Both the position numbers and the translations under genes were made by a program. This document shows, piece after piece, positions 10,861 to 63,835 of a DNA stretch of 64,000 nt. Every line of letters starts with the position of its first letter. Within the stretch, counting starts at the first letter, position 1. Source of the DNA: Alphaproteobacteria bacterium (GTDB lineage Bacteria > Pseudomonadota > Alphaproteobacteria > Reyranellales > Reyranellaceae); the NCBI GenBank assembly GCA_019635875.1, contig JAHBYP010000003.1:1-64000 (forward strand). The letters run 5' to 3'. The notes beneath the pieces are model-generated. The model saw only the letters and a program-made list of their open reading frames with translations, searched no databases and had not been told where the DNA came from.

Positions 10861-10909
10861 ATCCCTTCCCCCGGAGGGGCAGGGCCATCGCATATGGCTT
10901 TCGGGTTTC

Positions 10910-11031
10910 CCTTCCCCCGGAGGGGGAAGGTGGCGCGAAGCGCCGGATGGGGGATGTCGTAGACGGACTCCGCCGTTCGTCTTCGACATCCCCCTTCCGC
11001 CCTTCGGGCACCTTCCCCCTCCGGGGGAAGG
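10910..11031. repeat. Hairpin repeat, family A copy 3, with a preceding half copy
   Basis: This is a full compound hairpin between the convergent ppk2 and DUF454 genes. A half copy lies just upstream (10864-10878). Between the two is AGGGCCATCGCATATGG (10881-10897), nearly identical to the terminal inverted repeat of the MITE-like element at 11749. No matching right-hand terminal repeat is found here, so this copy looks like a truncated relative of that element. Confidence 0.8.
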
Positions 11032-11736: not shown

Positions 11737-11949
11737 GCCGCTCAACGCAGGGCTATCGCATATGGATTGCGGATCTACCTTCCCCCGGAGGGGGAAGGTG
11801 GCGCGCGCAGCGCGACGGATGGGGGATGTCTCAACAATATCGGTACTCGTCTTCGACATCCCCCATCCGCCCTGCGGGCACCTTCCCCCTCCGGGGGAAG
11901 GTAGTAACCAGTCAATTCATCCATATGCGATAGCCCTGCCGCTCAACGC
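11737..11949. mobile_element. MITE-like element with perfect terminal inverted repeats and flanking direct repeats
   Basis: The element proper spans 11749-11937 (189 bp). Its ends are the perfect 19-base inverted repeat AGGGCTATCGCATATGGAT (11749-11767) and its complement (11919-11937). It encloses a full family A hairpin (11778-11901). Immediately outside both ends is the same 12-mer, GCCGCTCAACGC (11737-11748 and 11938-11949), as expected of a target-site duplication. There is no coding capacity, so movement would need a transposase supplied elsewhere. It sits between the small lipoprotein gene and the 3' end of prfB. Confidence 0.7.
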
Positions 11950-11976
11950 GAGCGGCGCGCCGGTGCGCGTTGGCTG

Positions 11977-46108: not shown

Positions 46109-46158
46109 CTCCCTTCCCTTGGAGGGCTGGGCGATCGCATATGACGGTTCGTCTCCTA

Positions 46159-63663: not shown

Positions 63664-63664
63664 C

Positions 63665-63835
63665 AGGGCGATGGCCTATGACATTTCGTCTCCTCCCTTC
63701 CCCGGCTGGGGGTTGGCTGTCGAAGACGAAGACGGCCTCGCGAGACAGATCGCGTCTGCGATCACCCTGCCCGTCCGGGGAAGGAGAAGCCAGGGCCACT
63801 CGGCCATACGCGATCTCCCCCCGGCAGTAGCGACC
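63665..63835. repeat. Degenerate family A2 hairpin repeat
   Basis: The left flank GGGCGATGGCCTATGACATT resembles the flank of the copy at 46132, and the loop (GGCTGTCGAAGACGAAGAC and CAGATCGCG) is shared with it. The terminal palindromes are damaged (CCCTTCCCCGGCTGGGGG and CCGTCCGGGGAAGG). A possible right-terminal GGCCATACGCGAT remnant lies near 63807. Confidence 0.65.

What the first reader, a model, noticed from the sequence alone, without database searches (positions are those of the whole stretch)
11737..11949. Possible non-autonomous transposable element with matching target duplication
Perfect 19-bp terminal inverted repeats are bounded on both sides by an identical 12-bp direct repeat, and the interior is the family A hairpin. 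This suggests that the common CCTTCCCCC/GGGGGAAGG repeats of this genome are the cores of a MITE that moves by a transposase making a long duplication.
Basis: partly seen in the sequence, partly recalled or inferred. Interest (0 to 1): 0.6.

Follow-up and report, generated by a model that had tools for sequence, protein, structure and literature searches.

The report
ISAs1-type MITE carrying a palindromic repeat
The 191-base sequence is a real miniature mobile DNA element that uses the ends of a known bacterial transposon family (ISAs1) and makes a 10-base target duplication; what is unusual is that the same ends enclose several unrelated hairpin repeats and that the elements prefer to land in the middle of such hairpins.

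Summary
The element is 11748-11938 (191 bp). Its ends are perfect inverted repeats (CAGGGCTATCGCATATGGAT) flanked by a 10-bp target duplication (CCGCTCAACG); two coincidental edge bases made it look like 12. The genome holds 56 copies of the terminal motif (control 0) and one 1177-bp ISAs1-family IS with matching ends and a perfect 10-bp duplication, but a frameshifted transposase. Intact ISAs1 elements with the same ends occur in Caulobacter and Mesorhizobium. Of 86 end pairs from other genomes, 32 have perfect 10-bp duplications (0.55 expected), almost none at other lengths. Sister genomes show orthologous empty sites. So 'MITE with target duplication' holds, with ISAs1 as the likely driver. 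The palindromes are cargo and preferred target, not the element itself. Outside the window, they appear to have their own spreaders: family D flanks a REP-type (RAYT) transposase gene, and families A, B and C repeatedly flank DUF559 nuclease genes (association only).

The parts
11748..11938 (.). MITE with ISAs1-type ends, 191 bp
   Evidence: Ends shared with genome copies, with an ISAs1 IS of the same genome and with intact ISAs1 elements elsewhere
11748..11767 (+). Left terminal inverted repeat CAGGGCTATCGCATATGGAT
   Evidence: pair I2
11919..11938 (-). Right terminal inverted repeat, exact reverse complement of the left
   Evidence: pair I2
11738..11747 (.). Target duplication, left copy CCGCTCAACG
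11939..11948 (.). Target duplication, right copy CCGCTCAACG
11777..11902 (.). Passenger: one family-A repeat (GGA palindrome at 11777-11799, TCC palindrome at 11880-11902, inverted to each other)
   Evidence: D1, I1, I3; stand-alone copies elsewhere in the genome
11732..11743 (.). Left arm of the hairpin that forms the target site (empty site GGCGCGCCGCTC-AACGC-GAGCGGCGCGCC)
   Evidence: pair I4
11950..11961 (.). Right arm of the target hairpin
   Evidence: pair I4
10880..11031 (.). Second, half-decayed copy in the window: left end CAGGGCCATCGCATATGG kept, family-A core, right end no longer recognisable; its left flank is half of a palindrome (CCTTCCCCCGGAGGGG)
   Evidence: (L014)

Best explanation
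11748-11938 is a MITE of an ISAs1-family insertion sequence. An ISAs1 transposase acting in trans recognised the CAGGGC-N-ATCGCATATGG ends and inserted the element, with a 10-bp stagger, into a small GC-rich hairpin between a lipoprotein gene and prfB, duplicating CCGCTCAACG. The interior is a passenger: one copy of a separate, very common palindromic repeat (family A). Related MITEs with the same ends carry other palindromic repeats, and the whole set inserts by preference into the centres of such palindromes, so elements and palindromes are nested in each other. Shown: ends, duplication length, matching IS, empty sites, target bias. Inferred: action in trans, the chemistry, and how the interiors were acquired.
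For: 56 terminal motifs in the genome, control 0. IS with the same ends, ISAs1 transposase (NF033564, E 2.2e-70), inserted in a family-A palindrome with duplication CCCCTCCGGG. Intact ISAs1 elements with the same ends and 10-bp duplications: L137 Caulobacter hibisci, L077 Mesorhizobium AR07. Duplications: 32 of 86 non-own pairs perfect at 10 bp, 48 with <=1 mismatch, against 0.55 and 1.34 in reshuffled flanks; 0-3 at 8, 9, 11, 12 bp. Orthologous empty site of a G001 copy (L283) in G000 (L200); G000 copies L004, L012, L017, L021, L040 absent from G001 and/or G003. Target bias: stem >=6 bp at 54% of 54 sites against 2.1% of controls.
Against: The only ISAs1 gene in this genome is frameshifted, so no active source is seen here. 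No alignable empty site at the window locus itself. Many copies in this genome have decayed or mismatched duplications. Movement was not observed, only inferred.
Confidence: 0.9

Rival explanations
1. The shared ends serve mainly as a docking frame: cores are exchanged in place (recombination, template switching or gap repair after excision) rather than each core type being a separate transposing line.
For: At one orthologous site (L039) three congeneric genomes have the same boundaries with CATGAGA-type sequence at the edge but unrelated cores: A in G000, D in G001, short B in G003; seven genomes outside the genus show no such insertion.
Against: One site only; repeated insertion at the same place is not excluded. 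Core types elsewhere keep their own linkers, which suggests that they transpose as units.
Confidence: 0.25
2. One reading: the family-A palindrome is the mobile element and the CAGGGC ends are its normal termini, lost by decay in most copies.
For: Some family-A copies have one good and one decayed end (10880; L037, L039, L205).
Against: 604 palindromes; about 74 of 80 groups show no trace of an end on either side; the same ends enclose unrelated cores B, C, D and others in other genera; stand-alone family A has its own uninterrupted orthologous site (L200).
Confidence: 0.05
3. A chance or non-mobile mosaic palindrome (REP/BIME-like) whose outer repeats are part of a structural or regulatory repeat, not transposon ends.
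For: The whole unit folds as one hairpin (RNA z -16; DNA z -18).
Against: Exact 10-bp duplications, matching ends on ISAs1 elements with transposases, and empty sites.
Confidence: 0.03

Closest known systems
ISAs1-family insertion sequences (NCBIfam NF033564)
   Same: Ends CAGGG..., about 1.17-1.2 kb autonomous relatives with DDE transposase, 10-bp duplications; a duplication of 8-10 bp for the family is from memory.
   Different: The window element has no transposase gene and carries an unrelated palindromic core.
MITEs of bacterial ISs, e.g. MITEPye1 of Paracoccus yeei, related to IS1182 (PMC11578231)
   Same: Short, non-coding, terminal repeats of an IS, flanking duplications, long hairpin.
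   Different: Different IS family; here one pair of ends encloses several unrelated palindromic cores, and copy number is tens per genome rather than 1-3.
ISs that target REP palindromes (ISPsy8, ISPa11, ISPpu9/10, ISRm22; PMC1525189)
   Same: Insertion into the middle of high-copy palindromes.
   Different: Those are listed under IS3, IS110, IS4, IS256 and IS5, not ISAs1; and here the palindromes are also the cargo.
REP / BIME / REPIN repeats and RAYT transposases (PMC2817692, PMC3116915; abstracts)
   Same: The cargo is a pair of short palindromes in inverted order at high copy; family D flanks a Y1 transposase gene (L226).
   Different: Family A, the cargo in the window, flanks neither RAYT gene of this genome; it flanks a DUF559 gene (L304).

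Membership tests
MITE of an ISAs1-family IS | Terminal inverted repeats matching an IS of that family | tested here: met
   IS at L049:1359-2535 in the same genome, ends differ by 2 mismatches from the 18-bp consensus; L137 has the consensus exactly
MITE of an ISAs1-family IS | Target duplication of the length made by the IS (10 bp) | tested here: met
   10/10 in the window; IS copies L049, L077, L137 10/10; family statistics
MITE of an ISAs1-family IS | Short, non-coding, multi-copy | tested here: met
   191 bp; 56 terminal motifs in the genome; only open frames that run through from outside
MITE of an ISAs1-family IS | Copies at sites that are empty in relatives | tested here: met
   Met for other copies; the window site could not be aligned
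MITE of an ISAs1-family IS | Intact transposase source in the same genome | tested here: not met
   Single copy, frameshifted near L049:1736; real or assembly error unknown. Not strictly required for membership, since the source may be lost
MITE of an ISAs1-family IS | Mobilised in trans by the IS transposase | not testable with these tools
   Needs an in vivo assay
REP/BIME (RAYT-mobilised) for the family-A core | Same palindromes flank a RAYT gene | tested here: not met
   Two Y1 genes: L226 is flanked by family D, L225 by a different repeat
REP-targeting insertion element | Insertions concentrated in palindrome centres | tested here: met
   Perfect stem >=6 bp at 54% of 54 reconstructed sites against 2.1% of controls; 32 of 64 ends in this genome abut half a family-A palindrome

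The most novel reading that the evidence does not exclude
The ISAs1-type ends form a frame with exchangeable palindromic cores, and the cores are independent mobile repeats with their own spreaders: a RAYT for family D and, for families A, B and C, a DUF559 (Vsr-like) nuclease whose gene sits between the same inverted palindromes. DUF559 would then be an unrecognised mobiliser of high-copy palindromic repeats in Alphaproteobacteria.
Probability: 0.3. Interest if true: 0.75.

Novelty: new variant of a known kind. Interest (0 to 1): 0.5.

Why it matters
It ties a large set of anonymous GC-rich palindromes of Alphaproteobacteria to defined genes: ISAs1 transposase for the outer frame, RAYT for one core family and possibly DUF559 for others. 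It gives exact boundaries and a 10-bp duplication to look for, so these elements can be found automatically across genomes. The core-swap site and the DUF559 link are directly testable claims about how such repeats multiply.

Tried and rejected
Rfam: no match in the window. Literature searches for the palindrome letters, ISAs1 + target site duplication, DUF559 + palindromic and DUF559 + transposition gave nothing relevant. Empty site at the window locus: prfB is conserved in relatives but the intergenic stretch is not. Bradyrhizobium and Mesorhizobium empty sites could not be searched because only G handles may serve as centres. A composite transposon at L006 (two elements around a gene with matching 10-mers) was rejected: the two elements sit in two different copies of the same palindrome. 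The idea that GGA-left/TCC-right flanks (L004, L010, L015, L021) are longer terminal repeats was set aside in favour of the element sitting between the two halves of one family-A repeat; not proven. Two gene-neighbour flanks of a RAYT (L225) gave no link to families A-D.

Full report
Observation. The sequence 11748-11938 is bounded by perfect inverted repeats, and GCCGCTCAACGC occurs on both sides, as described. Comparison with the other copies puts the ends at CAGGG...CCCTG, so the duplication is 10 bp (CCGCTCAACG) and the two outer bases of the 12-mer are coincidence. The strand folds into one long hairpin (RNA z = -16; DNA z = -18).

A family in this genome. GGGCTATCGCATATGG with up to two mismatches occurs 56 times in the 6.2-Mb genome against 0 for the reversed pattern. 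Many hits face each other about 80-210 bp apart. Reading the copies and classifying 64 non-redundant ends shows four unrelated interiors: A (CCTTCCCCC; 27 ends), D (GGCGCGCCACTCC; 13), C (CTCTCCCCGC; 11), B (CTTCTCCCCGC; 9), other 4.

The matching transposase. One copy of the end (L032) lies at the end of a transposase gene. The full element is L049:1359-2535 (G000:C2), 1177 bp, ends CAGGGGAATCGCATATGA / TCATATGCGATAACCCTG. The protein belongs to NCBIfam NF033564, ISAs1 family (E 2.2e-70), with PF13808 and PF01609, but it is split by a frameshift near 1736 and is the only ISAs1 copy in the genome. It interrupts the right palindrome of a family-A repeat; both flanks carry CCCCTCCGGG, and joining the flanks with one 10-mer restores CACCTTCCCCCTCCGGGGGAAGG. 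Several carry ISAs1 transposase sequence next to the end. Caulobacter hibisci (L137, 364 aa, duplication CCCTGTGGGG) and Mesorhizobium sp. AR07 (L077, 368 aa, duplication CCCACAAGGG) have intact elements.

Duplication statistics. End pairs were chosen without looking at flanks, then left flanks were compared with right flanks. Non-own pairs (86): at 10 bp 32 perfect and 48 with at most one mismatch, against means of 0.55 and 1.34 (maxima 4 and 7) in 2000 reshufflings of the flanks; at 8, 9, 11 and 12 bp only 0-3 perfect. Own pairs (22): 4 perfect and 6 at <=1 mismatch; one perfect pair (L006) joins two separate insertions and should be discounted.

Empty sites. Elements of G000 at L004, L012, L017, L021 and L040 are absent from G001 and/or G003, and a G001 element (L293) is absent from G003. 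The window site itself has no alignable orthologue.

Target choice. For 54 copies with a 9-10/10 duplication I joined the flanks in a script. A perfect stem of >=6 bp centred near the duplication is present in 54% against 2.1% of control positions, >=8 bp in 41% against 0.2%. The window site scores low in that test because the hairpin axis lies 3.5 bp off the centre of the duplication, outside the allowed shift; its empty form GGCGCGCCGCTC-AACGC-GAGCGGCGCGCC is nevertheless a 12-bp-arm hairpin. Insertion of ISs of other families into REP palindromes is known (PMC1525189).

The cargo. In 40 of 50 duplication-verified copies the core alone folds at z < -3, against 2 of 50 random segments; core sequences differ between genera. 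Ten cores are not hairpins (e.g. L053, L111, L127), so a palindromic core is usual but not required. Family-A palindromes are not generally part of the element: 604 in the genome; in 844 kb about 6 of 80 groups have a recognisable end on either side, against 0 of 160 sides at <=3 mismatches in the wrong-orientation control.

What spreads the cargo? The genome has two Y1 (RAYT-type) transposase genes; one (L226) lies between inverted family-D repeats. Five of six near-full-length DUF559 genes lie between inverted repeats of family A (L304), B (L305, L306) or C (L307, L308). Of 35 DUF559 loci from this genome and relatives about 27 have such flanks (inverted-alignment score >=38; random positions mean 24, 95% 31, 99% 40; cross-paired loci mean 28.7, 95% 64). 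This is association only, strongest for the loci above 64; DUF559 could be a passenger.

One site, three cores. Between two oligopeptide-permease genes, G000, G001 and G003 have an insertion with the same boundaries (CATGAGA-type sequence at the edges) but cores A, D and short B; seven genomes outside the genus show no such insertion. Core exchange in place is one reading; repeated insertion is not excluded. In G003 the left end is decayed, which weakens that third case.

Verdict. The window element is a MITE of an ISAs1 IS, confidence 0.9. Its extension to all CCTTCCCCC repeats is wrong as stated. The kind is known; the shared frame with unrelated palindromic cores, and the mutual nesting with the repeats, make it a new variant.

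Noticed in passing
L304, L305, L306, L307, L308 (G000); L335, L337-L340, L342 and others in relatives: DUF559 (PF04480) genes lie between inverted palindromes of the genome's own high-copy families; candidate mobiliser of families A, B and C, or a passenger.
   Followed up: partly
L039 (G000:C5:554147-554333), L229 (G001:C142), L228 (G003:C9): Same insertion boundaries in three congeneric genomes but unrelated palindromic cores (A, D, B).
   Followed up: partly
L226:1398-2024 (G000:C3:444409): A Y1 (RAYT-type) transposase gene between inverted family-D repeats, so family D looks like its REP.
   Followed up: partly
L004, L010, L015, L021 (G000): Elements flanked by a GGA half-palindrome on the left and a TCC half-palindrome on the right, never the other way round: they seem to replace the interior of a family-A repeat rather than duplicate one palindrome.
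   Followed up: no
window 63664-63769 and 46127-46144: Further decayed relatives of the element in the window: a degenerate pair of ends near 63.7 kb and a single left end at 46.1 kb.
   Followed up: no
L304:1940-2263 (G000:C2): Tandem array of family-A units joined by GGGAAGTG-ATTC-type linkers beside a DUF559 gene.
   Followed up: no
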